Shown here: positions 7,011-27,292 of the stretch, piece by piece
Numbering within the stretch: the first letter of the stretch is position 1
Layout: each line of letters opens with the position of its first letter
From: Myxococcota bacterium
Lineage (GTDB): Bacteria > Myxococcota_A > UBA796 > UBA9615 > JAKLKC01
Assembly (NCBI GenBank): GCA_023150875.1
Contig: JAKLKC010000007.1
Coordinates: forward strand, 1 to 64,000
Reading direction: 5' to 3'
Length of the DNA: 64,000 nucleotides
Position numbers and translations under genes: made by a program
Notes under the pieces: generated by a model
Told to the model about the DNA's origin: nothing
Seen by the model: the letters and a program-made list of their open reading frames with translations, nothing else
The model's database searches: none

Positions 7011-7037
7011 AGTATACATGGATCGGGGGCCGTGCAA
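7011..7037 (-). promoter_or_regulatory. sigma-70-type promoter of nrnA
   Basis: On the minus strand, TTGCAC (7037-7032), a 15-nt spacer (16 if CTTGCA is taken) and TATACT (7016-7011). The predicted start lies about 35 nt before the nrnA ATG. The local AT-rich patch is conspicuous in this GC-rich window. Confidence 0.5.
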
Positions 7038-7117
7038 GCTGGCGGCCCGGCCCGCACCGCCTCCGCCAGCGTCGATCTCGGGCGGGTCGTCGTGGAGTGT
7101 TGCATGCCACCCTGGAC

Positions 7118-7324: not shown

Positions 7325-7431
7325 CTGGCCCCCGACCCGTGGGAGCGATATTATCCGGGGTCGCCGAGCGGCTCTGCCCGGGCGGGCCGCCGGGGCCACC
7401 GGCCGGCCCGGCGACGTGGGCTGACGTCCCC

Positions 7432-8718: not shown

Positions 8719-8722
8719 CCCC

Positions 8723-11179
8723 TTGGCCGCCCCCGCACCCCCCGAGGCCCGCGGGGAGCACCCCCCCCCCGCGCCGGTCCGCGTCCCCCCGGGGCTCGCC
8801 GTCGCCGGCCTGGTGGCCGTGTGCGCGGCGCTGGTGGGGGCCCTGTGGTTGCCGGGGCGCACCGTCGCCTACGGGGACCTCTTCCTGTACTTCCCGTCCC
8901 TGTACTCGGCGCTGGGGCACGCCTGGGACCCGTACCTCCAGGCCGGCACGCCGCTGCTGCCCAACCCCCAGGCGGGGTGGTTCTACCCCCCGGCCTGGCT
9001 GTTCGCCGGGGACTTCGTCTCGGGGATCGCCCCGTTCACGTTCCTGCACCTCCTCGTCGCCGCCGTGGCCACCTGGGCGTGGGCCCGGACCCGTTTCGGC
9101 GACGGGCTCGGCCCCTGGCTGGCGGCGGTGGCCTACGCCGCATCGGGGGCGACCTGGTCCCTGCTGGTCAACCCCGACAAGCTCCCGGGGCACGCGATGC
9201 TCCCCGTCGCCCTGCTGGGGTTGACGTGGTGGCTCTCCCATCCGCGGCCCGGACGGAGGGGAGCGGGGCTCGCCCTGGCCGCCGCCGCCGTCGGCGCGAG
9301 CTGGCTCGCGGGAAGCGTGGAGGCGGTCCTGCTGATGGGGGTGGTCCTCCCCGCGTGGGGTGCCGCGCTGCCGGGGGAGGAGGCGCGCCCGGCGGACCGG
9401 CTGAGAGGGGCCCTCGCCGGCCTGGTGGGGGTCGCCGGGGGGACCGCCCTGGCCGGCTGCGTCCTGGTGCCGTTCGCGGTGCTCCTTCCCGAGAGCAGCC
9501 GCAGCGAGGCCCTCTCCCTGGCCCAGCTCCTCTCCCGCGCCACCCACCCCGTGGACTGGCTGTCGTGGTGGGCGCCGGATCCCCTGGGGACATCCGGGGG
9601 CCTGGAGGCGGCGGATCCCTCGGTCGCTCCGCGCCCCCGCTACCTCCGGACCCTCTACGGCGGTGTGGTGGTCCTGCCCCTCGCGGCGACCGGCCTCGTC
9701 GCCCGGGGGGGGCGCCTCGGGCTGGCGGCCGCCACCGGCCTGCTCGCGTGCGCCGCCCTCGCCCTGGGCGACGCCAACCCCCTCTACCCCTGGCTCGTCA
9801 CCCACGTCCCGGGGCTGGGCGCGGTGCGCTACCCCGAGAAGTGGTGGCTGGGCACGGTCGCCTTCACGGCCTGGCTGGTGGCCGCCGGCTGGAGCGCCGT
9901 GGAGGAGGGGAGGCGGGGCCCTCGCGTCTTCGCGTCCCTGGCGGCCCTGAGCCTCGGGGCGGCGGCCCTGTGCGCGGGGGCGGCGGGAGGGGCGGCGGCC
10001 GAGGCGGGGAAGGCGGCCCTCGCGGCCTCCCCTGCGCTGGTGCTGGCCTGGGGGGCGGTGTCGGCGGGGGGGATCGGGCCGAGGGTGCGGGCGGCGGTGG
10101 TGGCGATGGTGGTGGTGGCGGACCTGCTCCCCGCGGCCTGGGCGGTGTTCGAGGTGGAGCGGGCCGGGGAGGTCTTCGCCGAGCCCCCCCTGGCGCGGGC
10201 GGTCCGTGCCGCCTGGGGGGACCGACCGGGGGTTCCCCGGCTCTGGGACGACTCGGTGCACGTGCTCGGGGGCTCGCCTCCCCGCCGCCCCGGCGAGTCG
10301 AGCGACGCCAGCCTGGTGCGGACCCTCGATCCCAACCTCGCCGTCGCCTACGGCATCGGCTACGTCGACGGGCGCCGCGCCATCGGCACCCTCCGCCACC
10401 AGCGGTACGCCATGCGCCTGGACGAGGTGGGGCCGCGGGACCGGCGGGCGCTGCTGCGCTCCATGGGCGCCGACTTCTGGGTGGTGTGGGACCCGGTGCG
10501 CGCCCTGGAGCTGGCCGCGGAGGCGGGCCTGGCGCCGGTGCCCGCCGCCCCCGGCTCCTCCCTCGACGTCGGCCTCCTGGCCGAGCCCGCCCCCCTGCCG
10601 CGGCTGCGCTGGGTCGGGGAGCGGCTGGACGCGGACGGGGAGGGCATGGCGATGGCGGCCATCCTGTCCCGGGACCCCACCCGGGCGGTGGTGGTGATCG
10701 CCGGGGATCCCGGCGCGCCCGACCTGGCGTCGCTGCCCCGGGGGGAGACGGGAGCGGCGGTGGGACGGAGCGACGGCGGCCCGGGGCGCGTCCTGGCGGT
10801 GGCCAACCCCGAGCCCGGCCGGTGGGAGGTCGCCTGGAGCGCCCCCCGGGACGGAGCCCTGGTGCTCCAGGAGGGCTGGGCCCCGGGCTGGGAGATCTCC
10901 GTCGACGGCGGCGCCTTCCGGCCGGCGGCGCGGGTGGACTTCATGCTGGTGGGCGCGGCGGCGCCGGCGGGGGAGCACCGCGCCGTGCTCCGCTACCGGG
11001 CCGCGGGCGCGGGGCTGGGCCTCGGACTCACGGCGGCGGCGGCGGCGGGGATCGCCCTGGCGGCGCTCCGGGTGGCCCGGCCGCGCCGTTCCCGCCCCCG
11101 GGCGCTTGACGCCCGGGGCGCCCATCGCCATACCGTTGCGTCCCGCGCCCGGGAGCGCGGACCCGGGGACGGGCGATGA
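8723..11179 (+). CDS. YfhO-like polytopic membrane protein
   Basis: About 818 residues with a TTG start at 8723, four bases after the preceding stop, with a GAGGAT ribosome-binding site upstream; the exact start is uncertain. The protein has 11 or more hydrophobic segments, an early periplasmic motif (AYGDLFLYFPSLYSALGHAWDPY) and PNPQAGWFYPPAWL, then a soluble C-terminal region with a beta-sandwich (LVLQEGWAPGWEISVDGG), and a last helix before an Arg-rich tail. This matches YfhO/GT-C-like proteins, which include lipoteichoic-acid glycosylation factors and many uncharacterised bacterial relatives. Its role is probably transfer of a lipid-linked sugar at the membrane, but no catalytic residue can be named. 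The stop overlaps the tyrS start (ATGA). Confidence 0.6.
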   Translation: MAAPAPPEARGEHPPPAPVRVPPGLAVAGLVAVCAALVGALWLPGRTVAYGDLFLYFPSLYSALGHAWDPYLQAGTPLLPNPQAGWFYPPAWLFAGDFVSGIAPFTFLHLLVAAVATWAWARTRFGDGLGPWLAAVAYAASGATWSLLVNPDKLPGHAMLPVALLGLTWWLSHPRPGRRGAGLALAAAAVGASWLAGSVEAVLLMGVVLPAWGAALPGEEARPADRLRGALAGLVGVAGGTALAGCVLVPFAVLLPESSRSEALSLAQLLSRATHPVDWLSWWAPDPLGTSGGLEAADPSVAPRPRYLRTLYGGVVVLPLAATGLVARGGRLGLAAATGLLACAALALGDANPLYPWLVTHVPGLGAVRYPEKWWLGTVAFTAWLVAAGWSAVEEGRRGPRVFASLAALSLGAAALCAGAAGGAAAEAGKAALAASPALVLAWGAVSAGGIGPRVRAAVVAMVVVADLLPAAWAVFEVERAGEVFAEPPLARAVRAAWGDRPGVPRLWDDSVHVLGGSPPRRPGESSDASLVRTLDPNLAVAYGIGYVDGRRAIGTLRHQRYAMRLDEVGPRDRRALLRSMGADFWVVWDPVRALELAAEAGLAPVPAAPGSSLDVGLLAEPAPLPRLRWVGERLDADGEGMAMAAILSRDPTRAVVVIAGDPGAPDLASLPRGETGAAVGRSDGGPGRVLAVANPEPGRWEVAWSAPRDGALVLQEGWAPGWEISVDGGAFRPAARVDFMLVGAAAPAGEHRAVLRYRAAGAGLGLGLTAAAAAGIALAALRVARPRRSRPRALDARGAHRHTVASRARERGPGDGR

Positions 11180-12465
11180 CCGACTTCGTGACCGAGCTCG
11201 AGCAACGTGGGTTGCTCTACCAGATCACCTCCCCCGCCGCCCGCGAGGCCCTGGCCTCGGGGACCGTCACCGGCTACACCGGCTTCGACCCCACCGCCCC
11301 GAGCCTCCACGTGGGCAGCCTCCTCCAGGTGACCGACCTGATGCGCCTGCAGCGCCACGGGCACCGCCCCATCGTGGTGGTGGGGGGCGCCACCGGCCTC
11401 ATCGGCGATCCCGGCGGCAAGGAGTCGGAGCGGCCCCTGATGGACTCCGACACCCTCGCCCGGAACCTCGCCGGGATGCGCGGCCAGTTGGAGCGCTTCC
11501 TGGACTTCTCCGGGCCCCGGGGTGCGCTGATGGTGGACAACGCCGAGTGGCTCGGCCGCCTGGACCTGCTGGGCTTCCTGCGGGACGTCGGCAAACACTT
11601 CTCGGTGAACGCCATGATCGCCCGGGACTCGGTGCGGACCCGGCTGGAGACCCGGGAGCACGGGATCTCCTTCACCGAGTTCTCCTACATGCTCCTGCAG
11701 GCCTACGACTTCCTCGCCCTCTACGAACGCTACGGCTGCACCCTCCAGCTCGGCGGCAGCGACCAGTGGGGGAACATCCTCTCGGGGGTCGACCTGGTGC
11801 GCCGGAAGCGGGGGGCCGAGGTCCACGGGATCACCGTGCCCCTGGTCACAAAGGCCGACGGCCGGAAGTTCGGCAAGTCCGAGCAGGGCAACGTGTGGCT
11901 GGACCCCGAGGCGACCTCCCCCTACGCGTTCTACCAGTTCTGGATCAACGTCGAGGACGCCGACGCTCCCAAGCTCATGCGGTACTTCAGCTTCCGGCCT
12001 CTGTCCGAGGTGGAGGAGCGGATCGCCGAGGGCCTGAAGGCCCCCGAGCGGCGGGAGGTCCAGCGGGCCCTCGCGGCGGAGGTCACCGACCTCGTCCACG
12101 GCGATGAGGCCAGGCGCCGGGCCGAGCGCACCGCCGAGGTCCTGTTCGGCGGCGGGGGCGGCGGTTGGGGCGATCTCTCACCCGACGACCTGCGCCAGGC
12201 CTTCGCCGCCTCTCCCTCGTCGGACCTCCCCCGGGAGGCCCTCGGAACCCCCGCGGCGGGGCTGGTGGCGGTCCTGGCCGAGTCGGGCCTGTGTCCCTCC
12301 CGGGGGCAGGCGAAGCAGGCCATCCAGAGCGGCGCGATCACCGTGAACGACCGCCGCGTCACCGATCTGGGGTACGCGCTGGGCCCGGCGGACCTGGTGG
12401 GGGACTCGTTCGTGGTGCTCCGCCGGGGCCGGAAGAGCTACCACGTCGTCCGGATCGCCCGCTGA
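11176..12465 (+). CDS. tyrS: tyrosyl-tRNA synthetase
   Basis: A 429-residue class I aminoacyl-tRNA synthetase that charges tRNA-Tyr in the cytoplasm. The HIGH-type signature is PSLHVGS (43-49), with GFDPTAPS before it. Tyrosine-pocket motifs are visible (SYMLLQAYDF; QLGGSDQWGNI), and the KMSKS-type loop is KFGKS at 231-235. The C-terminus (about 365-425) is an S4 RNA-binding domain (SRGQAKQAIQSGAITVNDRRV). Length and layout fit the bacterial TyrS of E. coli type. The ATG at 11176 overlaps the upstream membrane-protein stop by 4 nt. The convergent AIM24 gene begins only 5 bp past its stop, with no obvious terminator between them. Confidence 0.97.
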   Translation: MTDFVTELEQRGLLYQITSPAAREALASGTVTGYTGFDPTAPSLHVGSLLQVTDLMRLQRHGHRPIVVVGGATGLIGDPGGKESERPLMDSDTLARNLAGMRGQLERFLDFSGPRGALMVDNAEWLGRLDLLGFLRDVGKHFSVNAMIARDSVRTRLETREHGISFTEFSYMLLQAYDFLALYERYGCTLQLGGSDQWGNILSGVDLVRRKRGAEVHGITVPLVTKADGRKFGKSEQGNVWLDPEATSPYAFYQFWINVEDADAPKLMRYFSFRPLSEVEERIAEGLKAPERREVQRALAAEVTDLVHGDEARRRAERTAEVLFGGGGGGWGDLSPDDLRQAFAASPSSDLPREALGTPAAGLVAVLAESGLCPSRGQAKQAIQSGAITVNDRRVTDLGYALGPADLVGDSFVVLRRGRKSYHVVRIAR

Positions 12466-12470
12466 GGGGG

Positions 12471-13205
12471 TCAGGACCTCCCCGCCATCCGCCCCGACAC
12501 CTCGCGGGAGAGCTGCTGGAGCTCGCTGGCGTGGAGGCCGGTGAGCTGGGCGACGATGGATGCGAGGCGGCCGGGGCGCCCCAGCGCGTCCTCCGACGAC
12601 TGGACCAGCACCGTGCCGTTCCCGTAGAAGTCGAGCTGCTTCTCCTCGCCCGATCGGGTGATCCCGGCGGCGGCGCCGACGGCGGCCAGCGCCCCCTGGA
12701 CGTACTGGTAGTCGTAGCGGTACGACGGGCTCGGCAGGTCGGCCCAGCCGACGACGGCCTCCTCGTCCACCCGGCAGGGGGGCTCGACGAAGACCACGGG
12801 ACCGTTGGACGAGGCGAGGAGCCGGCCGCTGCCGATCAGGGTCAGGTAGCCCGGCAGGGTCGACTCCTGGCAGCGCAGCGTCCGCTGGAAGCCCAGGACG
12901 TGCTCGGCCTTGAGCGTGAACGTGGCGTCCTCCAGGTTGTAGGCCGCGATGTCCAGGCCGTTGTCCCCCAGCACCAGCTTGCCCTGCCCCTGCACCACCA
13001 CGAAGTCGTTCACGTGCATGGGGGCGTTCATCGCCTCCTTGAACAGGATGTCCACCAGGCTCGATCCCACCGCCTCGAACTTCATGGAGCCGAAGTAGGC
13101 GATCATCTTGCCCTTGCGGATGAACATCTCGCCGTCCACCCGGATGGAGTAGGCGAAGCGGCCGAGGTTGTCGTCGTCGGGGAGGGACTGGAAGGAGAGC
13201 CGCAT
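12471..13205 (-). CDS. AIM24 family protein (third of a tandem triplet)
   Basis: A 244-residue protein of the AIM24/DUF124 family (beta-prism-like folds; the mitochondrial member affects inner-membrane organisation). Family features include repeated beta hairpins with MFIRKGKMIAYFGSMKFEA, FVVVQGQGKLVLGDNG, LTLKAEHVLGF and GYLTLIGSGRLL. This copy differs from its neighbours: it has an insert around 150-190 (SYRYDYQYVQG...) and a C-terminal helix with LHASELQQLSREVSGRM. It is the last gene of a three-gene leftward unit, starting 3 bp after the second copy's stop. Molecular role unknown; membrane or stress homeostasis is suggested by the neighbouring ter genes and ion channel, which is inference. 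Confidence 0.8.
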   Translation of the reverse strand: MRLSFQSLPDDDNLGRFAYSIRVDGEMFIRKGKMIAYFGSMKFEAVGSSLVDILFKEAMNAPMHVNDFVVVQGQGKLVLGDNGLDIAAYNLEDATFTLKAEHVLGFQRTLRCQESTLPGYLTLIGSGRLLASSNGPVVFVEPPCRVDEEAVVGWADLPSPSYRYDYQYVQGALAAVGAAAGITRSGEEKQLDFYGNGTVLVQSSEDALGRPGRLASIVAQLTGLHASELQQLSREVSGRMAGRS

Positions 13206-13208
13206 CGC

Positions 13209-13847
13209 TTACCTCTCGCTGGCCTGGATGTAGACCGTGCCCTGCCCGGTGAAGCGGAGCTGGTAGCTCTCGCCCGAGGTCTGCCCCAGGAGGGTCTTCC
13301 AGTTCACGTCGGTGACGATGGTGGAGTCCAGGTTGCCCTTGTGGCCGAGGTACGCCTGGGGATCCACCGAGACCGGCCGGCTGGAGGTGACCTCCAGCCC
13401 GATGGCGTCGCCGTCGGACAGGAGGGCGACCTCGCCGTGGCCCTCGAAGGTGGAGGTGAACAGGCCCTGGCCCGCGGCGACCCCAGAGGCGAGGCCCCGG
13501 AGGCCCTGGCTGCCCAGGAAGGAGGTGCCCGCGCGCAGCCGGGCGTCGAAGGCGAGGACGTTGTCGGCTTCGACGCAGAGCCGCTCGCCCCGCAGGGGGA
13601 CCACGCTGACGTGGAGGCCCCGGTGCCCGTACCACACCTCCCCGTGGCCGCGAGCGGACATGAGCTGGATGCCCTCGTTGGTGACGGCCCGCATGGCCAA
13701 CTGCTGCACGCCGCCCCCGCCGAGGAAGGAGCGGGCGAAGAGCACGTCGCCCTTTGTCGCCACCATCGAGCCCTTCCGGGCGAAGACCTCCTCCCCCGCG
13801 AGGGTGACGTGGAGGACCTTCTCGTTCACCTGGGTGTAGACAGGCAC
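13209..13847 (-). CDS. AIM24 family protein (second of triplet)
   Basis: A 212-residue AIM24/DUF124 protein closely similar to the first copy: KVLHVTLAGEEVFARKGSMV, GVQQLAMRAVTNEGIQLM, NVLAFDARLRAG, GLFTSTFEGHGEVALLS and the C-terminal block DVNWKTLLGQTSGESYQL then GTVYIQASER. It has neither signal peptide nor membrane segment, so it is probably cytoplasmic or membrane-peripheral. The ATG at 13847 lies 10 bp after the first copy's stop and 3 bp separate its stop from the third copy, so translation is probably coupled. Tandem duplication followed by divergence is the simplest origin. Confidence 0.85.
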   Translation of the reverse strand: MPVYTQVNEKVLHVTLAGEEVFARKGSMVATKGDVLFARSFLGGGGVQQLAMRAVTNEGIQLMSARGHGEVWYGHRGLHVSVVPLRGERLCVEADNVLAFDARLRAGTSFLGSQGLRGLASGVAAGQGLFTSTFEGHGEVALLSDGDAIGLEVTSSRPVSVDPQAYLGHKGNLDSTIVTDVNWKTLLGQTSGESYQLRFTGQGTVYIQASER

Positions 13848-13857
13848 CGCTCCGCCC

Positions 13858-14478
13858 TCACTTCCGCTCGCTGGGCTGGACGTAGACCACGCCCGTCCCG
13901 GTGAACTTGAGCTGGTAGGACTCGCCCGAGGACTGGCCGACCATCGTCTTCCAATTCACGTCGAAGACGAACTCCTGGGCGAGGCTCCCGCGGTGGCCGA
14001 CGAAGGCGTCGGGGTCGACGAACAGGGGCTGGCCCGGGCCCACCTCGAACTCCAGCAGGTGCCCGAAGGACATCACCGCCACGTTCCCCGTGCCCTCGAC
14101 GGTGGTGGTGAACAGCCCGTGTCCCGAAGCGGCGCCCCTCAGCCCCGTGAAGACCGAGTCGGTCCGAAGCGAGGGATCGAAGGCGAGGAGGCTCCGGCTC
14201 TCGACGAAGAGCTTCTCGCCCCGCAGGGGCAGGATCGTCAGCTCCCGCGCCTGGTTGGCGAACCACACCGTCCCCGTGCCCGACGCCACCATCAGCGCCA
14301 TGCCCTCGTTGGTGACCCGGCGCTTGAGGGCCCCCAGCAGCCCCTCGCCGCCGGTCATCGACTTCTCGAAGCGGACGGACCCGTCGTAGGCGACCATGGC
14401 GCCGGCCAGGGCCATGACCTTCTCGCCTTGGAGGGAGACCTCCAGGAGGCGATCGTTGGTGAGTCGGAACGTCGTCAC
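13858..14478 (-). CDS. AIM24 family protein (first of triplet)
   Basis: A 206-residue AIM24/DUF124 protein and promoter-proximal member of the triplet. Visible family blocks are LLEVSLQGEKVMALAGAMVAY, LKRRVTNEGMALMVASGTGTVWF, LLAFDPSLRTDSVF, GLFTTTVEGTGNVAVMS and, at the end, DVNWKTMVGQSSGESYQL and VVYVQPSERK. No export signal is seen. A near-consensus sigma-70-type promoter (14551-14522) ends about 40 nt before its ATG. Its -10 box is identical to that of terD 5.5 kb away, suggesting common control. Confidence 0.85.
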   Translation of the reverse strand: MTTFRLTNDRLLEVSLQGEKVMALAGAMVAYDGSVRFEKSMTGGEGLLGALKRRVTNEGMALMVASGTGTVWFANQARELTILPLRGEKLFVESRSLLAFDPSLRTDSVFTGLRGAASGHGLFTTTVEGTGNVAVMSFGHLLEFEVGPGQPLFVDPDAFVGHRGSLAQEFVFDVNWKTMVGQSSGESYQLKFTGTGVVYVQPSERK

Positions 14479-14521
14479 GGGCAGCTCCGGCGAGGGCGCC
14501 GCGGGGCGACGCCGGGGGCCG

Positions 14522-14551
14522 ACTCTACGGTCCTGGGGCGGGCGGAGTCAA
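14522..14551 (-). promoter_or_regulatory. strong sigma-70-type promoter of the AIM24 operon
   Basis: On the minus strand, TTGACT (14551-14546), 18-nt spacer, TAGAGT (14527-14522). The predicted start is about 38 nt before the first AIM24 gene. The boxes closely match those before terD and terC. Confidence 0.6.
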
Positions 14552-14565
14552 GGCGCGGATCCCCC

Positions 14566-14595
14566 CTGCACCGGCGCCGCCGTCCCCTGTACTCT
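14566..14595 (+). promoter_or_regulatory. possible promoter of the sodium-channel gene
   Basis: CTGCAC (14566-14571), 18-nt spacer, TACTCT (14590-14595), 34 bp before the channel ATG. The -35 box is weak. It lies back-to-back with the AIM24 promoter. Confidence 0.3.
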
Positions 14596-14629
14596 TGCCG
14601 CTCCCCGTTGGAGGCTCGCCGCTACGCCC

Positions 14630-15526
14630 ATGGCCGCCCCCGCCCTTCACTCCTCCCCCGAGAGCGTCCCTCCCAGCGCCCTGACCTCCCGACGGCTCCG
14701 CCTCGCCGCTTGGGTCGAGAGCGCCCGGGTCCAACGGGTGGTCACCGCCCTCATCGTCCTGAACGCCGTCACCCTGGGGCTCGAGACCTCGCCCTCGGCG
14801 ACCTCGGCGGCGGGGCCCCTGCTCCACGGGCTGGACCGCGCCTTCCTGGCGGCCTTCGTTGTCGAGCTGGTGTTGAAGCTCCTCGGGCGGGGGGCCGGCT
14901 TCTTCCGCAGCTCCTGGAACGTCTTCGACCTGGCGGTGGTCGCCGTCTCCCTCGTGCCCGCGGCGGGCGCCCTCTCGGTGCTCCGGGCGCTGCGGGTCGT
15001 CCGGGTCTTCCGCCTGCTGACGGTGATCCCCAAGATGCGGATCGTGGTCTCGGGGCTGCTCAGCGCCATCCCCGGCCTGAGCTCGGTGGCGATGCTGATG
15101 GGGGTGGTGTTCTACGTGGCCGCCGTCATCGCCACCAACCTCTTCGGGCCCCACTTCCCCGACTGGTTCGGCAACGTCGGCCGGTCGATGTACACCCTCT
15201 TCCAGGTCATGACCCTGGAGAGCTGGTCCATGGGGATCGTCCGCCCGGTGATGGAGCGGTTCCCGTTCGCCTGGGTCTTCTTCGTCCCTTTCATCGTCGT
15301 CGCCACCTTCACGATGCTCAACCTGTTCATCGGGATCATCGTGAGCGCCATCCAGTCCTACGCCGCCGAGGAGGCCGCGGAGATCGCCGCCGCCGGCCCA
15401 CCCGAGCCGGGGCCCAGGGAGATCCTCGCCGAGATCGCCGAGCTCCGCCGGGTCGTGGAGGCCCTGGCCCCCGCTCAGGCCCGGACGTCCGATCCGCGCG
15501 GCGACGGCGTGACGCCGCCGGGCTGA
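14630..15526 (+). CDS. voltage-gated sodium channel, BacNav (NaChBac-type)
   Basis: A 298-residue single-domain six-helix channel of the inner membrane, which assembles as a tetramer in this family. S1-S4 span about 30-140; the S4 sensor runs LRALRVVRVFRLL from residue 118 with Arg every third position. The pore loop carries TLESWSM (195-201), almost identical to the TLESWAS selectivity filter of NaChBac, whose Glu and Ser ring gives Na+ selectivity. S6 (FIVVATFTMLNLFIGIIV) is followed by a charged C-terminal helix (EILAEIAELRRVVEAL) likely to be the tetramerising coiled coil. The ATG at 14630 precedes a short cytoplasmic N-terminus. It lies divergent from the AIM24 operon and convergent with terC; it may feed Na+ for motility or pH homeostasis, which is inference. 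Confidence 0.9.
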   Translation: MAAPALHSSPESVPPSALTSRRLRLAAWVESARVQRVVTALIVLNAVTLGLETSPSATSAAGPLLHGLDRAFLAAFVVELVLKLLGRGAGFFRSSWNVFDLAVVAVSLVPAAGALSVLRALRVVRVFRLLTVIPKMRIVVSGLLSAIPGLSSVAMLMGVVFYVAAVIATNLFGPHFPDWFGNVGRSMYTLFQVMTLESWSMGIVRPVMERFPFAWVFFVPFIVVATFTMLNLFIGIIVSAIQSYAAEEAAEIAAAGPPEPGPREILAEIAELRRVVEALAPAQARTSDPRGDGVTPPG

Positions 15527-15539
15527 CGCCTCGCCACCC

Positions 15540-16679
15540 TCAGGCGCCGTCGCCCCGACCGGCCCTGGACTCCGAGCCCGCCCCGGCGGTGGGCACGCCC
15601 TCCCCGGCGCCGGGCTCGGGGGCTTCGTCCTCCTTCTCGGGCCAGATGAAGGAAGCGATCACGCCGCCGGCCAGCACCGCGAGGATCACCACCAGGCTCT
15701 GCCCCGGCGTGATGTCGAACCCGGGCCAGTGGAAGAGGTGGTTGGTGGCGTGGATCAGGAGCTTGGCGGAGATGAAGAAGAGCAGGCCGATCACCGCCTT
15801 CTCCAGGTGCACCAGGTAACGGGTCAGGGCCGCGAGCACGAAGTACAGCGAGCGCAGGCCCAGGATCGCGAAGATCATCGCGGAGTATATCAGCAGGGGT
15901 TCCCGGGTGACGGCGATCACCGCCGGGACCGAGTCGAAGGCGAACATCACGTCCGAGGCCTCGATCAGGATCAGGCAGATGAAGGCCGGCGTGACGTACC
16001 AGGCGGCCCCGGGTCGGCCGAGGACCAGGGTCGGGTCCTTGCGGGCCATCTCCCGGGCCTCGTCCCCCCGGACGAAGAAACGGACGTCCAGCAGCCGGGG
16101 GAACACGGCGAAGACCCCCTGCGCCCACTTCACCACCCGGTGGTTGTCGTAGTCCTCGCCCTCGTCGTCGTCCCCACCGCGGCTGCTCAGCATCTTCCAG
16201 GCCGACCAGCCCACCACCGCGGCGAACAGGAGGTCCGCCCAGGGGCCGAGGAGGAGCAGGAAGTTGCCCGCGGCGACGAAGACGAGGCGGAACATCAGCG
16301 CCCCCAGGATCCCCCAGTAGAGGATGCGGTGCTGGAGGGCGCTCTGGATCCGGAAGTAGGAGAAGATGGCGATGAACACCATCAGGTTGTCCACCGAGAG
16401 CGTCTTCTCCAGCGTGTAGCCCGCCAGGAAGAGGGCCGCGGCGTCCGCGTTGAAGCGGTGCCGGAGGTAGAAGTAGAAGGCCCCCGCCAGGCCGATCCAG
16501 AACAGGGTCCAGATCGAGGCGTCCCGTATGGAGATCTCCTTGTGGCCCCGGTGCAGGAAGAGGTCCACGTAGACCGAGAGGGCCACCGTGCCGGCGAAGA
16601 TGGCCAGCACGTCCAGGGGAAACCCGACGTGCTCTCCGAGGGCGGTCCCGGCGGCGAGGGGCAGCATGGGCAGGGTCAT
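15540..16679 (-). CDS. TerC/Alx family integral membrane protein
   Basis: A 379-residue polytopic membrane protein, probably an Mn2+ or other metal exporter. TerC-family signatures include a first helix with Asp (VALSVYVDLFLHR), GYTLEKTLSVDNLMVF (the conserved E-x-x-L-S-x-D-N motif in helix 3), and LILIEASDVMFAFDSVPAVIAV (the second conserved Asp pair). About nine hydrophobic segments are visible, with a cytoplasmic Asp/Glu-rich loop (GGDDDEGEDYDN) and an acidic tail. The ATG at 16679 has a GGAG ribosome-binding site; a longer frame upstream is Pro/Arg-rich and not family-like. It is preceded by its own strong promoter at 16937-16909, implying a leader of about 220 nt, and follows the HAD-StiP-PRTase genes on the same strand. 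Confidence 0.9.
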   Translation of the reverse strand: MTLPMLPLAAGTALGEHVGFPLDVLAIFAGTVALSVYVDLFLHRGHKEISIRDASIWTLFWIGLAGAFYFYLRHRFNADAAALFLAGYTLEKTLSVDNLMVFIAIFSYFRIQSALQHRILYWGILGALMFRLVFVAAGNFLLLLGPWADLLFAAVVGWSAWKMLSSRGGDDDEGEDYDNHRVVKWAQGVFAVFPRLLDVRFFVRGDEAREMARKDPTLVLGRPGAAWYVTPAFICLILIEASDVMFAFDSVPAVIAVTREPLLIYSAMIFAILGLRSLYFVLAALTRYLVHLEKAVIGLLFFISAKLLIHATNHLFHWPGFDITPGQSLVVILAVLAGGVIASFIWPEKEDEAPEPGAGEGVPTAGAGSESRAGRGDGA

Positions 16680-16908
16680 CTCGGGACTCCGTGGTTGGGG
16701 GCGCGGCCGGGCCGCCGGCGCCCCGGAGCGCAGACGACACGGGAGGACCCCCGCACCTTCCGCCACCGCGGGCGAACGGGCTCGATTCCGGCGGGGCGGC
16801 GGGGGTCCGGGGGAGGGGGACTGGGGAAGGAGCGATGGGCGCGGGGGAGGGGACGGCCCCTTCGCGGGACCGCGCGCCCGCGCAAGCCCCGCTCCGTCCG
16901 ACCGGCGC
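16680..16908 (-). other. long untranslated leader of terC
   Basis: About 220 nt lie between the predicted transcription start and the terC ATG. Alx/TerC genes elsewhere are often controlled by a yybP-ykoY manganese riboswitch, but I do not find that motif's conserved strands here. The leader is rich in C and G runs that can pair (GCGCGGGCGCGCGG and CCGGCGGCCCGGCCG). Any regulatory role is inference. Confidence 0.35.
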
Positions 16909-16937
16909 ATTCTAGGCGCGGGCTTCCCCGGGGTCAA
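16909..16937 (-). promoter_or_regulatory. strong sigma-70-type promoter of terC
   Basis: On the minus strand, TTGACC (16937-16932), 17-nt spacer, TAGAAT (16914-16909), directly after the HAD gene stop. The -35 box is identical to that of terD. Confidence 0.6.
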
Positions 16938-16985
16938 CGAGGGTCCGGAGGGGCGAGACCCCGCGGTGGAGCGGTGGAGTCCCGA

Positions 16986-17744
16986 TCAGGCGAGGGCCTC
17001 CAGGCGCTCCAGGACCTCGGCCAGTCCCGCGTGGCCAGGTGCCCGGGACACGAGGCCGCCCGCCCCGAGGACCGCTTCGGTCGCCGCTGGCGACGCCCCG
17101 GCCAGGGTGCAGGGGAGGGCCACCCGGCGGAGCCAGACGAGGTCGTTCTCGCCGTCCCCGATCCCCGCCGCCCCCTCCGCTCCCTCCCCGAGGAGGGCCT
17201 GGAGGGCGCTCCACTTGTGGGCTCCCTCCCCGGCGACGTACACCTTGCGCCCGTCCCGGAACCCGCGCAGCGCGGCGTCGTGGCGGCGCGCCCGGTGGAG
17301 GAGGGTGGGGGCGAGGGCCGCCGCCTCCTCCCGCTCCACCGCCCGCGCCACCAGGCAGGACTCGAAGTCGTCCTGCCACTCGAAGGGGGGCCAGCCCCGC
17401 TCCCGCTCTCCCTCGAGGGCGGCCCGCAGGTCCCGCCAGCGTCGGTGGGGCTCCAGGGGGCGCACGGCACCGGGGGGGCCGCAGCGGCCGCCGTCCTCCA
17501 CCACCAGCCCCGCCACCCGCGCCCCCCGGGACTCCAGGGCCTCGGCCACGATCCGGGTGCCGGCCAGGGAACGCCCCGTCGCCAGGACCAGGTCGTAGCG
17601 CCGCCCCAGCCGGATCAGGGCGTCCAGGGTGGCGCCGGCGAGGAAGGAGGGCCGGGTGCGGCCGGGTACCGTCACCGCTCCTGGAGCGGGCTGGGTGTGG
17701 AGCAGCGTGCCGTCCAGGTCCAGGACGAGGGGGCGCAGACTCAC
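16986..17744 (-). CDS. HAD-superfamily hydrolase of the Ter-associated module
   Basis: A 252-residue Mg2+-dependent HAD phosphatase, Cof-like in layout. Motif I is LDLDGT with the nucleophile Asp9 and acid Asp11; motif II is the Thr in LATGRS; a C2-type cap lies between; the late Lys is in AHKWSAL and motif IV is GIGDGENDLVW. The start is the GTG at 17744, which overlaps the StiP-gene stop (GTGA). A PRTase_2-StiP-HAD order is typical of the Ter-dependent stress system, in which the HAD is thought to dephosphorylate an intermediate of a nucleoside-like metabolite; that role is from comparative genomics, not shown here. Confidence 0.8.
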   Translation of the reverse strand: MSLRPLVLDLDGTLLHTQPAPGAVTVPGRTRPSFLAGATLDALIRLGRRYDLVLATGRSLAGTRIVAEALESRGARVAGLVVEDGGRCGPPGAVRPLEPHRRWRDLRAALEGERERGWPPFEWQDDFESCLVARAVEREEAAALAPTLLHRARRHDAALRGFRDGRKVYVAGEGAHKWSALQALLGEGAEGAAGIGDGENDLVWLRRVALPCTLAGASPAATEAVLGAGGLVSRAPGHAGLAEVLERLEALA

Positions 17745-18790
17745 GAGCCGCTCATCCTCGCCGCCGCCGTCGCCCCCCAGGCGGCGACCTCGGCCCGGCG
17801 CCACGAGACCGGCACGCGCCGCAGGCGGCACAGGTGGAGCAGGGGGGCCAGGGGCTCCGCGGTCTCCTCGGGCCCCCCGGCCAGCCACACCTCCCGCGGC
17901 TGCCGGTTGATCAGCGCCCGGGCGACCTCGTTGACGTGGAGCCTCCACCCGGGCGGGGGCTCGCCGACCGCCTCGGGCGGTGGGGCGTCCAGGTCCTCGT
18001 CCGAGGGCGGACCCTCGCCGGCCCGGAGCCACGCCCCGACCAAGTCCTCCCGCCACAGGCCGCGGGGGAAAGTGTAGACCCGGAAGGGCTCCCCCTCCCC
18101 GGTCATGAAGCCCCGGGAGAAGCCCAGGGTGCGGGGGGCGGTGAAGGTGGAGCTGGGGACGAACCGGTCGGCCCGGGTCGCCGCGGCGTCCGCGAAGCCG
18201 CGGGGATCGCAGAGCACCGCCAGGCGGGGCCCCTCCCCGGAGGTGAAGTCGCCGCCGTCCGCCGCCAGCCACCCCGCGTGGGAGGCCCGCAGCTCCCGCG
18301 CCACGCCCCCGCCGCTGGTCCAGCCGTCGACGAACCACACGGGGCGGCCGGGCCAGCGGTCCAGTACCGACCGGAGGGCAGCGGCGTCCCAGCCGGCGCC
18401 GTGGAACAGGGAGAGGGCGGCCACGGGCACGGGCTCCCCCCACCTGGCCTCCAGGGCCCGGGACAGCAGGGCGGCCACGGGGACCCCCGCCCGGAGCACC
18501 GCCAGCAGCAGAGGCGGCGCGGCGTCGAGACCGGCCACCTGGTCGGCGAGGCGCGCCACGGCGGCGGAGATCCAGGGCGCCTCCCGGCGGATGGACGCCA
18601 GGACCAGGGCGTCGATCTCGGCGTCCAGCGCGGGTTCGGGGGAGGGGAGGGCCCAGCGGCGCCACCCGGTCACCTCGGGATCGAAGGCCTCCTCGCCCCG
18701 GAATCGCCCCGCCGCACCGGGATCGTGGGGATCGATGGGCCCTGCGTCCCGGGCGGCCACCACGAGGTCCGGCCAGGGGGTGGGGATCAC
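17741..18790 (-). CDS. StiP-type protein with C-terminal PELOTA-like RNA-binding domain
   Basis: A 349-residue protein. The N-terminal part is related to a phosphoribosyltransferase fold (LLLAVLRAGVPVAALLSRAL, 94-113; VWFVDGWTSGGGVARELR, 151-168; LAVLCDPRGFADAAATRADR, about 190-209, then VPSSTF and a SR pair). These blocks match the StiP family (PF11202, labelled a cysteine protease from computational work; the only cysteines I see are Cys194 and one in the C-terminal domain). The last 65 residues (LHVNEVARALINRQPREVWL, AEPLAPLLHLCRLRRVPV) look like the PELOTA RNA-binding domain found at this position. GTG at 18790 overlaps the PRTase stop; the stop overlaps the HAD start. The tight overlaps argue that the three proteins act together. 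Confidence 0.75.
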   Translation of the reverse strand: MIPTPWPDLVVAARDAGPIDPHDPGAAGRFRGEEAFDPEVTGWRRWALPSPEPALDAEIDALVLASIRREAPWISAAVARLADQVAGLDAAPPLLLAVLRAGVPVAALLSRALEARWGEPVPVAALSLFHGAGWDAAALRSVLDRWPGRPVWFVDGWTSGGGVARELRASHAGWLAADGGDFTSGEGPRLAVLCDPRGFADAAATRADRFVPSSTFTAPRTLGFSRGFMTGEGEPFRVYTFPRGLWREDLVGAWLRAGEGPPSDEDLDAPPPEAVGEPPPGWRLHVNEVARALINRQPREVWLAGGPEETAEPLAPLLHLCRLRRVPVSWRRAEVAAWGATAAARMSGS

Positions 18791-19857
18791 CTCGGCACGA
18801 TCCAGGTGCGGGCGCGCCCGCCCCGCCGCCGCCACCAGTCCGCCAGCGCCTCCGCGTGCCCCGCCGTCGAGGGGTGGCTGGCGATCCACGCCAGCCCGGG
18901 TGGGGAGGGGACGTCGGGGTTGTAGAGGAAGTGGGGGGGCGCGTCCCCCGCCGCCCCGAGGCGGAGCCGCCCGCGGATCCACGCCCCGTCGACGTGCCAG
19001 GGGCTGCGGGTGACGTGGCGGAAGACCGGCCGGTCCCCCTCGGGCCCGGCCCACAGGTCCAGCGGAGCGGACACGCACTCGCCGATGGCGAACACCGCCC
19101 GGGGCGGATCGGCGCGCCACGCCTCCTGGTCGGAAGGGTCGCCCCGGTCCGGGCGGGGGCGCGGGGCTCCGGGGCGGCCTGGTGGGAGGTCCTCGCGCGC
19201 CGCCCCACCTACCCGGCCCGAGGGAGGCGGCGAGGCCAGGGAGTGGACCCGCACGCTCAGACCCAGGTCGGTGGCCAGGGAGGAGAGGGCGAGGCGGGCG
19301 CCCGGGGGACGTCGGTCCTCCAGGGTGACGACGTCCAACACCGGGGCGACGTCCGCCAGGGCCCGCACCAGGTTGGCCAGGGTGGCGCCGGTGGTCAGCT
19401 CGTCCTCGACGACCACGACGCGGCGGAAGGGAGCGCCCTCCGGGAGGACCACGTGGTGGTGGGGGCCGTGGGAGTGGGGCTCGTCGAAGCGTCGCGCGAG
19501 GCCCCCCACCGGCTCCTCCCGGGAAGAGAAGGCCAAGCGGGAGCCCTCCGGCAGGTGGGGCAGCAGGAACCACGCGGGGATCAGCGACGACTCGGCGAGG
19601 CCGATCGCCAGGACCGGCTCGGTCAGCGCCGGGAGCCGCGCCGCCATCGCCGCCGCCGCGGCGCCCAGGGCCCCACCGTCCAGGGGACCGAGCTTCCCCG
19701 CGACGAGGGAGGCGTACCCCTCCCGCCGCAGCGGATTGCCGTCACGCCGGACCCGCACCAGCGTCGGGGGCCCCACCGGAGGCGCGCCGTGGGGAGAGGG
19801 GGATGGGGAGTCGAGACCGCGGGGAGGGATGGGAGGGGAGACTGTAGGCGCGGGCAA
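18787..19857 (-). CDS. PRTase_2-TRSP orotate-phosphoribosyltransferase-like enzyme of the Ter module
   Basis: A 356-residue protein. The N-terminal domain is a type I phosphoribosyltransferase with the PRPP-binding motif VVVVEDELTTGAT (147-159). A His-rich loop (EPHSHGPHHH) precedes it. The C-terminal domain contains the exact TRSP tetrad (283-286, in HVTRSPWHVDG) that names the TRSP domain (PF12500) always found after PRTase_2 (PF15609). These enzymes are predicted to attach or remove ribose-phosphate on a base-like substrate in the Ter-linked pathway. Start is the ATG at 19857, although a GTG near residue 34 (TLVRVRRDGN) is possible because the first 30 residues are Pro/Ser-rich. First gene of a leftward unit, divergent from terD across a 225-bp region. 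Confidence 0.8.
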   Translation of the reverse strand: MPAPTVSPPIPPRGLDSPSPSPHGAPPVGPPTLVRVRRDGNPLRREGYASLVAGKLGPLDGGALGAAAAAMAARLPALTEPVLAIGLAESSLIPAWFLLPHLPEGSRLAFSSREEPVGGLARRFDEPHSHGPHHHVVLPEGAPFRRVVVVEDELTTGATLANLVRALADVAPVLDVVTLEDRRPPGARLALSSLATDLGLSVRVHSLASPPPSGRVGGAAREDLPPGRPGAPRPRPDRGDPSDQEAWRADPPRAVFAIGECVSAPLDLWAGPEGDRPVFRHVTRSPWHVDGAWIRGRLRLGAAGDAPPHFLYNPDVPSPPGLAWIASHPSTAGHAEALADWWRRRGGRARTWIVPR

Positions 19858-19934
19858 CGGTCGATCCCTCCCGGTGGCCCTCCCCAGCGCGCGCCATCGC
19901 CGGACGGCGCGCCGAGCGGGCTCGGGCGCGGCCG

Positions 19935-19964
19935 ATCATAGCGGAGGGCCGGCTCGGGCGCGAA
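19935..19964 (-). promoter_or_regulatory. probable promoter of the PRTase-StiP-HAD unit
   Basis: On the minus strand, TTCGCG (19964-19959), 18-nt spacer, TATGAT (19940-19935). The -10 is good, the -35 weak. It is back-to-back with the terD promoter. Confidence 0.4.
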
Positions 19965-19986
19965 CGCCCCGGTCCCGGAGGCGCGA

Positions 19987-20015
19987 TTGACCACCCCCGC
20001 CGCCTGGAATAGAGT
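19987..20015 (+). promoter_or_regulatory. strong sigma-70-type promoter of terD
   Basis: TTGACC (19987-19992), 17-nt spacer, TAGAGT (20010-20015). The predicted leader is about 60 nt. The same -10 hexamer precedes the AIM24 operon and the same -35 precedes terC. Confidence 0.6.
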
Positions 20016-20082
20016 CGCGGGCCAACGTGGATGGAGCCGCGCCCAGGGTCGCCGGGGCGCCGGCCCGGGAGGGAGAGCGAGC

Positions 20083-20664
20083 ATGGGAATCACGCTGACC
20101 AAGGGGCAGAAGATCTCGCTGGACAAGGAGGCCGGCACCCGCCTGGCGAAGGTGGTGATGGGCCTCGGCTGGGACCCCATCAAGACCAAGGGTTTCCTGG
20201 GCTTCGGCGCCAAGCAGCTCGAGGTGGACCTGGACGCCTCCTGCCTGATGTTCGACGCCGCGAAGACCCTGGTGGACGCGGTGTGGTTCCGCCAGCTCGC
20301 CAGCAAGGACGGCAGCATCCGGCACACCGGCGACAACCGGACCGGCGCAGGCGACGGCGACGACGAGCAGATCGTCGTGGACCTCTCCGCCGTCCCCGCG
20401 GGGATCCAGACCCTGGTCTTCGTGGTCAACAGCTTCACGGGCCAGAACTTCAGCCAGATCGAGAACGCCTCCTGCCGGATCCTCGACCAGAGCAGCGGCC
20501 GGGAGATCGCCAAGTACGACCTGAGCTGCCAGGGCAGCCATAACGCCCAGGTCATGGCGAAGCTCTACCGGCACAACGGCGAGTGGAAGATGCACGCCAT
20601 CGGCGAGAACGCCTCGGGGCGCACGTTCCACGAGCTGCTGCCGGCGATCAACGGCTGGTTGTAG
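20083..20664 (+). CDS. TerD family Ca2+-binding stress protein
   Basis: A 193-residue single-domain TerD/TerZ/TerE-type protein, usual length for the family. Visible signatures are GITLTKGQKISL at the N-terminus, GLGWD, DLDASCLMFD (49-58, Ca2+-site Asp residues), the GDGDDEQIVVDLS block, LVFVVNSF and the C-terminal MHAIGENASGRT. TerD proteins are cytoplasmic or membrane-associated Ca2+ binders linked to tellurite, phage and membrane stress. The ATG at 20083 has a GGGAG ribosome-binding site. It stands alone on this strand, divergent from the biosynthetic genes, and faces the thiC 3' end. Confidence 0.95.
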   Translation: MGITLTKGQKISLDKEAGTRLAKVVMGLGWDPIKTKGFLGFGAKQLEVDLDASCLMFDAAKTLVDAVWFRQLASKDGSIRHTGDNRTGAGDGDDEQIVVDLSAVPAGIQTLVFVVNSFTGQNFSQIENASCRILDQSSGREIAKYDLSCQGSHNAQVMAKLYRHNGEWKMHAIGENASGRTFHELLPAINGWL

Positions 20665-20719
20665 ACAGGCCGGGCACGGGCTCGGGCGCGGTCCCGGGGG
20701 GCGGGCGGGGGAGGCGCGA

Positions 20720-23669
<2,950 letters not shown>

Positions 23670-23795
23670 GGGGACCTCCGGGGCGCCCGGGCGGCGCCGA
23701 GCGCGACAAGGTAGCAGGCGCCGTCCCCGAAGGGGAGGGGCCGGGTCCGGGGCCCGCTTGTGCGTCGGAGCCGCGGGGCAGACGATGTCGCCACC

Positions 23796-25001
23796 GTGGA
23801 CAACGTCACCCACACCCTCTTCGGCGCCCTCCTGGGGGCCACCCTCGTCCCCCCCGGCTCCCGCCTCCACCGGGGCGCGGTGGTGGCGGCGATGGTGGGC
23901 AGCAACCTGCCCGACGCGGACCTCGTCGTCTACCTGCTGCCCCCGCCCGCGGGGGGCGACTCCCTGGCGTACCTGCTCCACCACCGGGGCTGGACCCACG
24001 TCCTGCTGGCCGCGCCCGTGCTGGCTCCCGTCGCCGTCTGGGCGGGGATCCGCGCCGGGGGGCTGGGCCGCGGCGCCTGGCCGGCCCTCGCGGGCGTCGC
24101 CCTGGCCGCGGGCCTGCTCCACGTGGGCGCCGACGCGCTGAACGACTACGGGGTCCACCCCTTCTCGCCCTTCGACCACCGCTGGATTTACGGCGACACC
24201 CTCTTCATCGCCGAGCCCGCGATCTGGCTGGCCCTGCTGCCCTTCGCCGCCGCCGCCGCGCCGTCCCGGGCGGCGCGGGTCCTTTGCCTCGCCCTGGCCG
24301 CCATCCCGCTGGGGCTCGCCTGGGGGGGCGTGCTGGGCACGCTGCCCACGGCCCTGGGCCTGACCGCATGGGCGGTCCTGGCCCTCTTCGCGCAGTCCCG
24401 CCTCGGGGGGGTGCTCCCCGCCTGGGCCGGGCTCCTGGCGGTGGTCCTGGCCTTCGCCGCCGGGGCCCGCGCCGCCCGTACTCTGGTGTCGGAAGCCCTC
24501 GCCCGGGCCGCCCCCGGGGAGCGGATCGCGCAGGTCGTCGTCTCCCCGGCCCCCGGCAACCCCGCGTGCGCGCGGGTGATCGCCGCCTCCGTGGACGGCG
24601 CGGACTGGCGACTTCGCCTGGGCACCGTGGACCTCCTTCGGCGGCGCGGCGACGCCCCGGCCTGCCATCCCTTCGCCCACCGGCCCCGCACCCTGGCCCT
24701 CGAGCCCCCCTCCACGCCGGTGCCCGAGGGGGTCGTCTGGCTCGGGGAGTACTCCGTCCCCCTCGCGGAGATCCGGGCCGCATCGGCGGAGGACTGCCGC
24801 CTCGCGGCTCTGCTGCGATTCGCGCGGGTGCCCTTCCTGGCCGACCCTCCCGAGGGGCGGATCGCCGGGGACCTCCGCTACGACATTGAGCCGGGCCTCG
24901 GCTTCGCCGAGATCCCCCTGGACGGCGCCGGCCCCTGCCCCTCGCCGGTCCCGCCCTGGGAGACGCCGGCCCTGGGCCTCCTCGCGCCGGCCGGCCGCTG
25001 A
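23796..25001 (+). CDS. membrane-bound metal-dependent hydrolase-like protein (DUF457/YdjM type)
   Basis: A 401-residue polytopic protein. It begins with the family's typical [14 protein letters not shown], followed by SNLPDADLV (Asp pair), [10 protein letters not shown] and [22 protein letters not shown], i.e. the His/Asp set of the YdjM/DUF457 phospholipase-C-like group. Four to six more hydrophobic segments follow, then a soluble C-terminal region that varies in this group. The GTG at 23796 is chosen because family members start at this Asp-Asn; a GTG at 23760 is in frame. It is divergent from thiG and shares a 126-bp promoter region. Substrate unknown. Confidence 0.7.
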
Positions 25002-26672: not shown

Positions 26673-27134
26673 TCAGCCGGGGATCGCCTCCAGGACCTTC
26701 CGGGCGTGGCCGTCCACGGTCACCTTCGGCCAGACCCTCGCCACGTTCCCGTGGGGGTCCACCAGCACCGTCGAGCGGACGATCCCCTGGACCTCCTTCC
26801 CGTACATCTTCTTGATACCGAACGCCCCGTAAGCCTGGAGGGTCGCCTTCCCGGGGTCCGACAGCAGGGGGAAGGTCAGGCCCTGCCGGTCGCGGAACCC
26901 CTGGTGGCTCCGCACCGAGTCGGCGCTCACGCCGAGGACCTCGGCGCCCCGGGCCAGGAACTCCGGGTAGAGGTCGCGGAACTGCTGGGCCTCCAGGGTG
27001 CAGCCCGGGGTGTTGTCCTTGGGATAGAAGAAGAGGACCACCCACTTCCCGGCGAAGTCCGCGAGGGACACCGGCCCGGCGTCGCCGTCGAGGGTGAAGG
27101 GGGGAGCGGGTTCGCCGACGGTGGGGTGGGGCAT
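26673..27134 (-). CDS. bcp: Bcp-type thiol peroxidase
   Basis: A 153-residue atypical peroxiredoxin (AhpC/TSA superfamily, PrxQ/Bcp group) that reduces hydroperoxides in the cytoplasm. The peroxidatic Cys45 lies in YPKDNTPGCTLEAQQFRD; the Thr at P-x-x-T positions (TPGCT) and a late Arg complete the active site. The resolving Cys that many Bcp proteins have five residues later is Gln here, and no other Cys is present, so it should work as a 1-Cys enzyme. The ATG at 27134 has an AGGAG site 7 nt upstream. A hexamer repeat array begins just upstream. Confidence 0.9.
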   Translation of the reverse strand: MPHPTVGEPAPPFTLDGDAGPVSLADFAGKWVVLFFYPKDNTPGCTLEAQQFRDLYPEFLARGAEVLGVSADSVRSHQGFRDRQGLTFPLLSDPGKATLQAYGAFGIKKMYGKEVQGIVRSTVLVDPHGNVARVWPKVTVDGHARKVLEAIPG

Positions 27135-27150
27135 GGGGTACTCCTGGGAA

Positions 27151-27292
27151 AGCACGAGCGCGGGCACGGGCACGGGCACGAACACGAGGCGCGGGCACGA
27201 ACAGGAGGCGCGAGCACGAGCACGAGCGCGAACACGAGGCGCGGGCACGGGCACGGGCACGGGCACGATCGCGAACACGAGGCACGGGCACC
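27151..27292. repeat. imperfect GGGCACG/AACACGAG repeat array
   Basis: About 140 bp of hexamers of the form C(A/G)CG(A/G)(A/G): GGGCAC, GAACAC, GAGCAC, GAGCGC. It is in the divergent gap between bcp and the flagellar activator, the same setting as the arrays at 4929 and 7118. Confidence 0.85.

What the first reader, a model, noticed from the sequence alone, without database searches (positions are those of the whole stretch)
16986..19857. Ter-associated biosynthetic module: PRTase_2-TRSP, StiP-PELOTA and HAD in one overlapping unit
The three genes overlap by 4 nt at both junctions. The exact TRSP tetrad, the PRPP motif and the StiP VDGWT block identify the module that Anantharaman, Iyer and Aravind linked to TerC/TerD and proposed to produce a nucleoside-like metabolite. 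No product is known. The commonly linked ATP-grasp and HpcH-like genes are absent from this neighbourhood, so this is a minimal version useful for testing what the core does.
Basis: partly seen in the sequence, partly recalled or inferred. Interest (0 to 1): 0.65.

Follow-up and report, generated by a model that had tools for sequence, protein, structure and literature searches.

The report
Divergent minimal Ter phosphoribosyltransferase gene trio
Three tightly packed genes beside stress genes terC and terD form a rare, divergent, stripped-down version of a known but uncharacterised set of enzymes thought to make a nucleoside-like signal, so it is a useful small test case for an open question and not a new kind of system.

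Summary
Two details are weaker than stated. Pfam's TRSP (PF12500) and PELOTA (PF15608) profiles do not detect this copy; homology of those ends rests on profile-profile comparison. TerC was found beside no other copy examined.
New here: the trio belongs to a divergent clade with three members found: this genome, an uncultured Myxococcales MAG and a Gammaproteobacteria MAG. PRTase_2 and StiP trees both give it 100/100 support. Its gene order is PRTase_2-StiP-HAD, not PRTase_2-HAD-StiP, and the canonical HAD profile misses its HAD. The window genome (98% complete) has no Ter C-C lyase and only CarB as an ATP-grasp match. PRPP-loop, EPHSH and TRSP residues are conserved. Best reading: PRTase_2 makes a nucleotide-like compound, StiP is a second or regulatory PRTase-fold protein, HAD dephosphorylates. 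The reaction is inferred. New variant of a known kind.

The parts
18787..19758 (-). PRTase_2-type phosphoribosyltransferase (323 aa, probable GTG start) with C-terminal TRSP-type region
   Evidence: PF15609 63.9 bits; model matches APRT/OPRT at residues 25-178, VIA Z 12.8, rmsd 2.8 over 140 residues; TRSP region homologous by hhalign; start from relatives
17741..18790 (-). StiP-type PRTase-fold protein (349 aa) with a divergent PELOTA-like C-terminus
   Evidence: PF11202 94.3 bits; hhalign to canonical StiP 99.83%, E=9.2e-30, and PELOTA region 87%, E=3.9e-6; PyrR/HPRT-like core, VIA Z 11.2, in a low-confidence model
16986..17744 (-). HAD-superfamily hydrolase (252 aa)
   Evidence: PF08282 29.5 bits; TIGR01484 27.6 bits, below its cut-off 41.8; DLDGT and GDGEND motifs read from the sequence; 60% identical to the partial G202 copy and 35% to the L037 copy
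20083..20664 (+). terD (193 aa, ATG start), divergent from the trio
   Evidence: PF02342 180.8 bits; start and stop codons
15540..16679 (-). terC, Alx-type, downstream on the same strand
   Evidence: PF03741 132.9 bits; TIGR03718 316 bits, cut-off 246.4; ATG start
13858..14478 (-). AIM24-family gene 1 of 3
   Evidence: PF01987 142.8 bits
13209..13847 (-). AIM24-family gene 2 of 3
   Evidence: PF01987 121.7 bits
12471..13205 (-). AIM24-family gene 3 of 3 (most divergent)
   Evidence: PF01987 45.2 bits
19987..20015 (+). promoter-like TTGACC-N17-TAGAGT upstream of terD
16909..16937 (-). promoter-like TTGACC-N17-TAGAAT upstream of terC
14522..14551 (-). promoter-like TTGACT-N18-TAGAGT upstream of the AIM24 genes

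Best explanation
The trio is a divergent, self-contained version of the Ter-linked nucleotide-chemistry module. Shown: family relationships, three-gene conservation in three genomes, conserved PRTase residues, and absence of the Ter C-C lyase and of any dedicated ATP-grasp in this genome. Inferred: PRTase_2 uses PRPP to put a phosphoribosyl group on a base-like acceptor drawn from ordinary metabolism. StiP, a second PRTase-fold protein with an intact RAGxP loop, a one-acid PRPP loop and a small PELOTA-like end, either performs a second phosphoribosyl step or holds the product or an RNA. HAD removes the phosphate to give a nucleoside-like compound. TerD, a presumed ligand-binding protein, and the Alx-type TerC with the AIM24 proteins would be the downstream stress responders. 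That this is a divergent member of the Ter PRTase module I hold at about 0.93; the reaction scheme at about 0.5.
For: Family hits. PRTase_2 keeps GNPxR, EPHSH, (E/D)DExTTG and TRSP, shared with canonical copies, and its model matches APRT/OPRT. StiP keeps RAGxP and VDGWT. The variant clade is one group, 100/100, in both trees. Same gene order in three of three members found. TerD sits next to PRTase_2 in this window and in L023, L024 and L025, and beside the ATP-grasp gene in L026. The Gammaproteobacteria copy lies between a 5'-nucleotidase/metallophosphatase gene and a kinase gene. The literature passage assigns PRTases and HADs of Ter systems to nucleoside/nucleotide synthesis.
Against: No substrate, product or expression datum exists here. 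The StiP PRPP loop has only one acidic residue in all 15 rows, so its catalysis is doubtful. Pfam TRSP and PELOTA do not fire. The variant HAD is only weakly tied to the canonical HAD (84.6%, E=6.8e-6), so it may be a separate recruitment with another substrate. The Gammaproteobacteria copy has no TerD or TerC within its 17 kb stretch. The trio lacks the promoter-like site its Ter neighbours share. The StiP model has mean pLDDT 49.7.
Confidence: 0.55

Rival explanations
1. StiP is not an enzyme but a PyrR-like, nucleotide-sensing RNA-binding regulator; only PRTase_2 and HAD do chemistry.
For: Top VIA rows for the StiP model are PyrR chains, Z 11.2. The PRPP loop has a single acid, (V/I)D(G/T)W, in 15 of 15 rows. 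Its C-terminus is related to a family Pfam names an RNA-binding domain.
Against: PyrR and HPRT rows differ by about 1 Z or less and are tied or nearly so; the model is poor; the RAGxP loop is kept; from recall, UPRT enzymes also have one acid in this loop; the PELOTA region of this copy is below Pfam detection.
Confidence: 0.25
2. The trio is an ordinary nucleobase salvage or nucleotide-detoxifying set that merely sits beside ter genes.
For: The PRTase_2 model is closest to APRT/OPRT. TerC adjacency is seen only here. The Gammaproteobacteria copy has no ter genes nearby. The promoter-like pattern is absent upstream of the trio.
Against: A paired second PRTase-fold gene and a TRSP region are not part of known salvage enzymes (recalled). 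TerD lies beside this family in the window and three other stretches.
Confidence: 0.15
3. The module modifies RNA or DNA bases (base exchange or ribosylation) rather than making a free metabolite.
For: PRTase fold coupled to a PELOTA-related end.
Against: No nucleic-acid-modifying partner was identified next to the trio; the HAD favours small phosphorylated substrates (family knowledge).
Confidence: 0.07
4. StiP is a cysteine protease, as its Pfam name says.
For: Pfam title of PF11202.
Against: No cysteine column is conserved: the best column has Cys in 8 of 15 rows and no other column reaches 4; the window has Tyr there, and the three variants share no invariant Cys. The fold is PRTase-like.
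Confidence: 0.02

Closest known systems
Ter-linked biosynthetic module: ATPgrasp_Ter, PRTase_2-TRSP, HAD, StiP-PELOTA, HpcH-like lyase (e.g. Deinococcus sp. QL22 plasmid, locus L055)
   Same: PRTase_2, StiP and HAD partners; shared catalytic-type motifs; TerD neighbourhood in Myxococcota copies
   Different: Separate 100/100 clade; order PRTase_2-StiP-HAD; TRSP and PELOTA below Pfam detection; HAD not found by the canonical HAD profile; no linked ATP-grasp or HpcH gene
   Same: Three-gene core beside divergent terD genes, no C-C lyase in the genome
   Different: Canonical sequences and gene order; an unlinked ATP-grasp gene above the PF15632 cut-off is present
Adenine/orotate phosphoribosyltransferases
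   Same: Type I PRTase fold and PRPP loop of PRTase_2
   Different: Low identity (11-23% in the 50 VIA rows shown), EPHSH loop and an extra TRSP region
PyrR
   Same: PRTase core of the low-confidence StiP model
   Different: One-acid PRPP loop and additional C-terminal region

Membership tests
PRTase_2 (PF15609) | profile score above the curated cut-off | tested here: met
   63.9 vs 28.8 bits
TRSP (PF12500) | profile score above the curated cut-off | tested here: not met
   no match at E<=10, whole protein or C-terminal piece
TRSP (PF12500) | TRSP tetrad in a homologous C-terminal region | tested here: met
   TRSP letters in 3 of 3 variants; hhalign to canonical C-termini 95.95%, E=5e-9
StiP (PF11202) | profile score above the curated cut-off | tested here: met
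   94.3 vs 28.7 bits; three canonical relatives score 286-324 bits
PELOTA_1 (PF15608) | profile score above the curated cut-off | tested here: not met
   no match for the window copy at E<=10; 14.9 bits, below cut-off 25, for the L037 copy
Ter biosynthetic module | PRTase_2, StiP and HAD genes together | tested here: met
Ter biosynthetic module | ATP-grasp and HpcH-like lyase linked | tested here: not met
   none in this genome beyond CarB and a 25.5-bit PF03328 match in a 667-codon frame
Ter biosynthetic module | linked to terD | tested here: met
   terD at 20083-20664; also adjacent in L023, L024, L025
Ter biosynthetic module | linked to terC | tested here: inconclusive
   true in the window, 0 of 13 other fetched stretches and not in L037; several stretches are short or truncated
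Ter biosynthetic module | makes a nucleoside-like metabolite | not testable with these tools
   needs biochemistry
Type I phosphoribosyltransferase | PRPP-binding loop and fold in PRTase_2 | tested here: met
   VVVVEDELTTGATL; VIA Z 12.8, rmsd 2.8, 140 residues
Known anti-phage defence systems | match in PADLOC-DB | tested here: inconclusive
   0 of 8 proteins matched at E<=0.01; a library holds only described systems

The most novel reading that the evidence does not exclude
The three-gene clade is a complete pathway on its own: two PRTase-fold proteins and a HAD turn PRPP and a common base into a free nucleoside-like signal. In the Gammaproteobacteria copy that signal is processed by the upstream 5'-nucleotidase-like protein, which has a signal-peptide-like start, and read by the 7TMR-DISM hybrid kinase whose gene overlaps the HAD gene by 4 nt. 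The ter module would then be a signalling system whose product and sensor could be identified from one operon.
Probability: 0.12. Interest if true: 0.75.

Novelty: new variant of a known kind. Interest (0 to 1): 0.42.

Why it matters
The product of the Ter biosynthetic module is described as only predicted, and its link to the TerC complex as unclear, in a passage I read (PMC8115787). A clade that keeps only PRTase_2, StiP and HAD, with catalytic-type residues conserved over very large sequence distance, says that these three are the chemical core and that the ATP-grasp and C-C lyase are accessory or replaceable. It also shows which residues matter, and that 'cysteine protease StiP' is a misleading name. 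Three genes are easy to express and assay.

Tried and rejected
Viral contigs scan with the variant StiP pair: no relative. Phages: one weak 25.6% match in an unannotated record. Plasmids: five Deinococcus records, all under 60% identity. PADLOC and PHROGs: nothing. Rfam on 12000-24000: nothing at gathering score. Solved structures by sequence: only sub-threshold PRTase matches (best E 0.025 for PRTase_2, 0.06 for StiP) and weak HAD matches. No VIA row told anything about the TRSP part of the PRTase_2 model or the C-terminal part of the StiP model; those parts are barely tested.

Considered and dropped: chance ORFs (same trio in two other genomes); StiP as a protease (no conserved Cys); a ter-specific regulon from the shared promoter-like sites. 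The pattern was drawn from the three sites themselves, and its three other genomic matches lie upstream of a CarD/CdnL-like gene, an XPB-like helicase gene and an enoyl-CoA-hydratase-like gene, as I read the translations, so it looks like a general strong promoter. The statement that canonical G116 and G240 lack all extra partners was withdrawn after searches showed unlinked ATP-grasp genes there; G202 has one too.

Rows and limits: the StiP tree has 15 rows and the PRTase_2 tree 12. L028 was left out of the canonical PRTase_2 set. The HAD comparison used 8 canonical rows, leaving out L028 and L032, and the G202 HAD is cut by the contig end at 149 aa. Early calls with window:17741-18823 (3, 11, 18, 26, 30) include 11 codons upstream of the probable StiP start. 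The phylum search drew 377 genomes from a larger group. The genome-contig scan used two short peptide patterns, so it can miss relatives.
Full report
Anatomy. On the minus strand the window encodes PRTase_2 (18787-19758), StiP (17741-18790) and HAD (16986-17744), with two 4-nt GTGA overlaps. Downstream on the same strand follow an Alx-type terC (TIGR03718, 316 bits) and three AIM24 genes; divergent upstream is terD. AIM24 genes are reported to neighbour terD often (PMC5822837, passage), so I read the whole block 12471-20664 as a Ter locus. An ion-channel gene (14396-15526 +) lies inside it.

Family tests. PF15609, PF11202 and PF08282 are met. PF12500 and PF15608 are not met, even at E<=10. Profile-profile comparison with canonical copies supports homology of the whole PRTase_2 (99.85%, E=1e-30) and of its TRSP region alone (95.95%, E=5e-9), and of whole StiP (99.83%, E=9.2e-30) and, more weakly, its PELOTA region alone (87%, E=3.9e-6). 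StiP scores 95 bits here against 286-324 bits in the three other genomes with a match, of 141 searched.

A divergent clade. A protein search of 377 genomes of the phylum gave 14 genomes with any match, the window's own included; one other (G202) is close, at 62%. The genome-contig scan gave two loci: a contig of an uncultured Myxococcales MAG, of the same length and match position as the G202 contig and taken to be the same, and a Gammaproteobacteria MAG contig (L037). A profile search of 71 genomes of the same class found no further close member (two canonical ones only); of two genomes in the family of the Gammaproteobacteria MAG only that MAG itself matched. In trees of StiP (15 rows) and PRTase_2 (12 rows) the three variants form one group with 100/100 support, separated by a long branch; long branches and uneven composition are flagged there. 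From the G202 record title, and since G202 shares the window's phylum, I infer that the window is from a Myxococcota genome.

What differs from the canonical module. Canonical order, as annotated in Deinococcus sp. QL22, is ATP-grasp, PRTase_2, HAD, StiP, HpcH-like. The variants have PRTase_2, StiP, HAD in all three genomes. A profile of canonical HADs finds a HAD in ten stretches with canonical or related modules but none of the variant HADs; hhalign gives 84.6%, E=6.8e-6, so a separate recruitment within the HAD superfamily is possible.

Missing partners. In the window genome (6.92 Mb, 97.99% complete) PF15617 has no match, PF03328 one match of 25.5 bits inside a 667-codon frame, and PF15632 one match which is carbamoyl-phosphate synthase large subunit. 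Across 12 genomes, PF15617 is present in 5 and absent from G000, G202, G377, G116, G240, G053 and G282, of which G053 and G282 are only 81 and 75% complete. PF15632 has matches in all 12, but above 70 bits only in G060, G201, G194 and G206. G202, G240 and G116 keep unlinked ATP-grasp genes whose best Pfam match is PF15632, at 41.0, 40.1 and 34.2 bits, so absence of an ATP-grasp is firm only for G000 and, with unknown completeness, G377 (CarB only).

Residues. In PRTase_2, GNPxR or NPxR, F..E.HSH, the (D/E)DE.(T/S)(T/S)G.T loop, GE and (T/S/V)R(S/A)P are shared between variants and canonical copies, apart from the deviant L028 (G240b) copy, which lacks TRSP. In StiP, RAGxP, (V/I)D(G/T)WT and the E..R...R.P core of the C-terminus are shared, with single exceptions (RGG in the Deinococcus ficus row, WI for WT in G240b). 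No cysteine column is conserved (one column reaches 8 of 15 rows, no other reaches 4), so the Pfam title 'cysteine protease' has no support here. The PRTase_2 model (mean pLDDT 73.1) matches APRT/OPRT over residues 25-178. The StiP model is poor (49.7), but its core matches PyrR and HPRT chains at Z 9.7-11.2.

Neighbourhoods. With the window's own terD as query, terD is found in L023, L024, L025 and L026, 4 of 13 fetched stretches (two of the 13, L034 and L035, carry no module). It is immediately beside PRTase_2 in the first three; in L026 it is beside the ATP-grasp gene. terC and AIM24 queries hit none of the 13 and not L037. In L037 the trio lies 24 nt downstream of a 5'-nucleotidase/metallophosphatase gene (PF02872, PF00149) with a hydrophobic signal-peptide-like start, and the HAD gene overlaps by 4 nt a 7TMR-DISM hybrid histidine kinase gene.

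Promoter-like sites. The generic scan found 2 sigma-70-like sites in 15400-20800 against 0.1 in shuffles. A TTGAC/TANNNT pattern with spacing of 16-18 plus one base occurs 3 times in 64 kb (0.03 expected), all upstream of AIM24, terC and terD. A tighter pattern drawn from these three occurs 6 times in the whole genome, control 0. The other three precede unrelated genes, so I read it as a strong general promoter, not a regulon mark. The trio has no such site; a TATGAT at about 19945 on the minus strand is only suggestive.

Mechanism. Best-supported scheme: PRPP-dependent phosphoribosyl transfer by PRTase_2, a second catalytic or a sensing role for StiP, dephosphorylation by HAD, response through TerD and TerC. 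The literature passage that describes Ter systems this way (PMC7824862, passage) is itself a prediction. Shown here are homology, conservation and gene content; every reaction step is inferred.

Verdict. A real, rare, divergent and reduced form of a known but biochemically uncharacterised module: a new variant of a known kind, of moderate interest. In my paper searches (open-licence library only) I saw no listing that reports this variant, but most of those papers were not opened.

Noticed in passing
L028 (G240:C56), 7108-13943, minus strand: Another unusual module: StiP-PELOTA, then a PRTase_2 that lacks the TRSP motif, then an HMGL/homocitrate-synthase-like gene, with two ABC-transporter ATPase genes upstream and a HAD-like match at 6407-8023. 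An HMGL enzyme may stand in for the HpcH-like lyase.
   Followed up: partly
14522-14551 -, 16909-16937 -, 19987-20015 +: Half (3 of 6) of the genome's matches to TTGACY-N17/18-TAGART lie in one 5.5 kb stretch, upstream of AIM24, terC and terD.
   Followed up: partly
L065 (G000:C147:141645-142791): A second terD-type pair elsewhere in the same genome, next to a sodium:sulfate symporter-like gene.
   Followed up: no
L024 2089-3351 and L066 8931-10343: TerD domain fused to a trypsin-like peptidase in two ter clusters of the same phylum.
   Followed up: no
14396-15526 +: Voltage-gated-type ion channel gene (PF00520) inside the Ter block, its frame overlapping the first AIM24 gene on the other strand.
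   Followed up: no
27094-27300 and roughly 7.1 kb: Low-complexity GC-rich repeats (runs such as Arg-Ala in translation) upstream of a peroxiredoxin-like frame and inside the frame 6061-8718.
   Followed up: no
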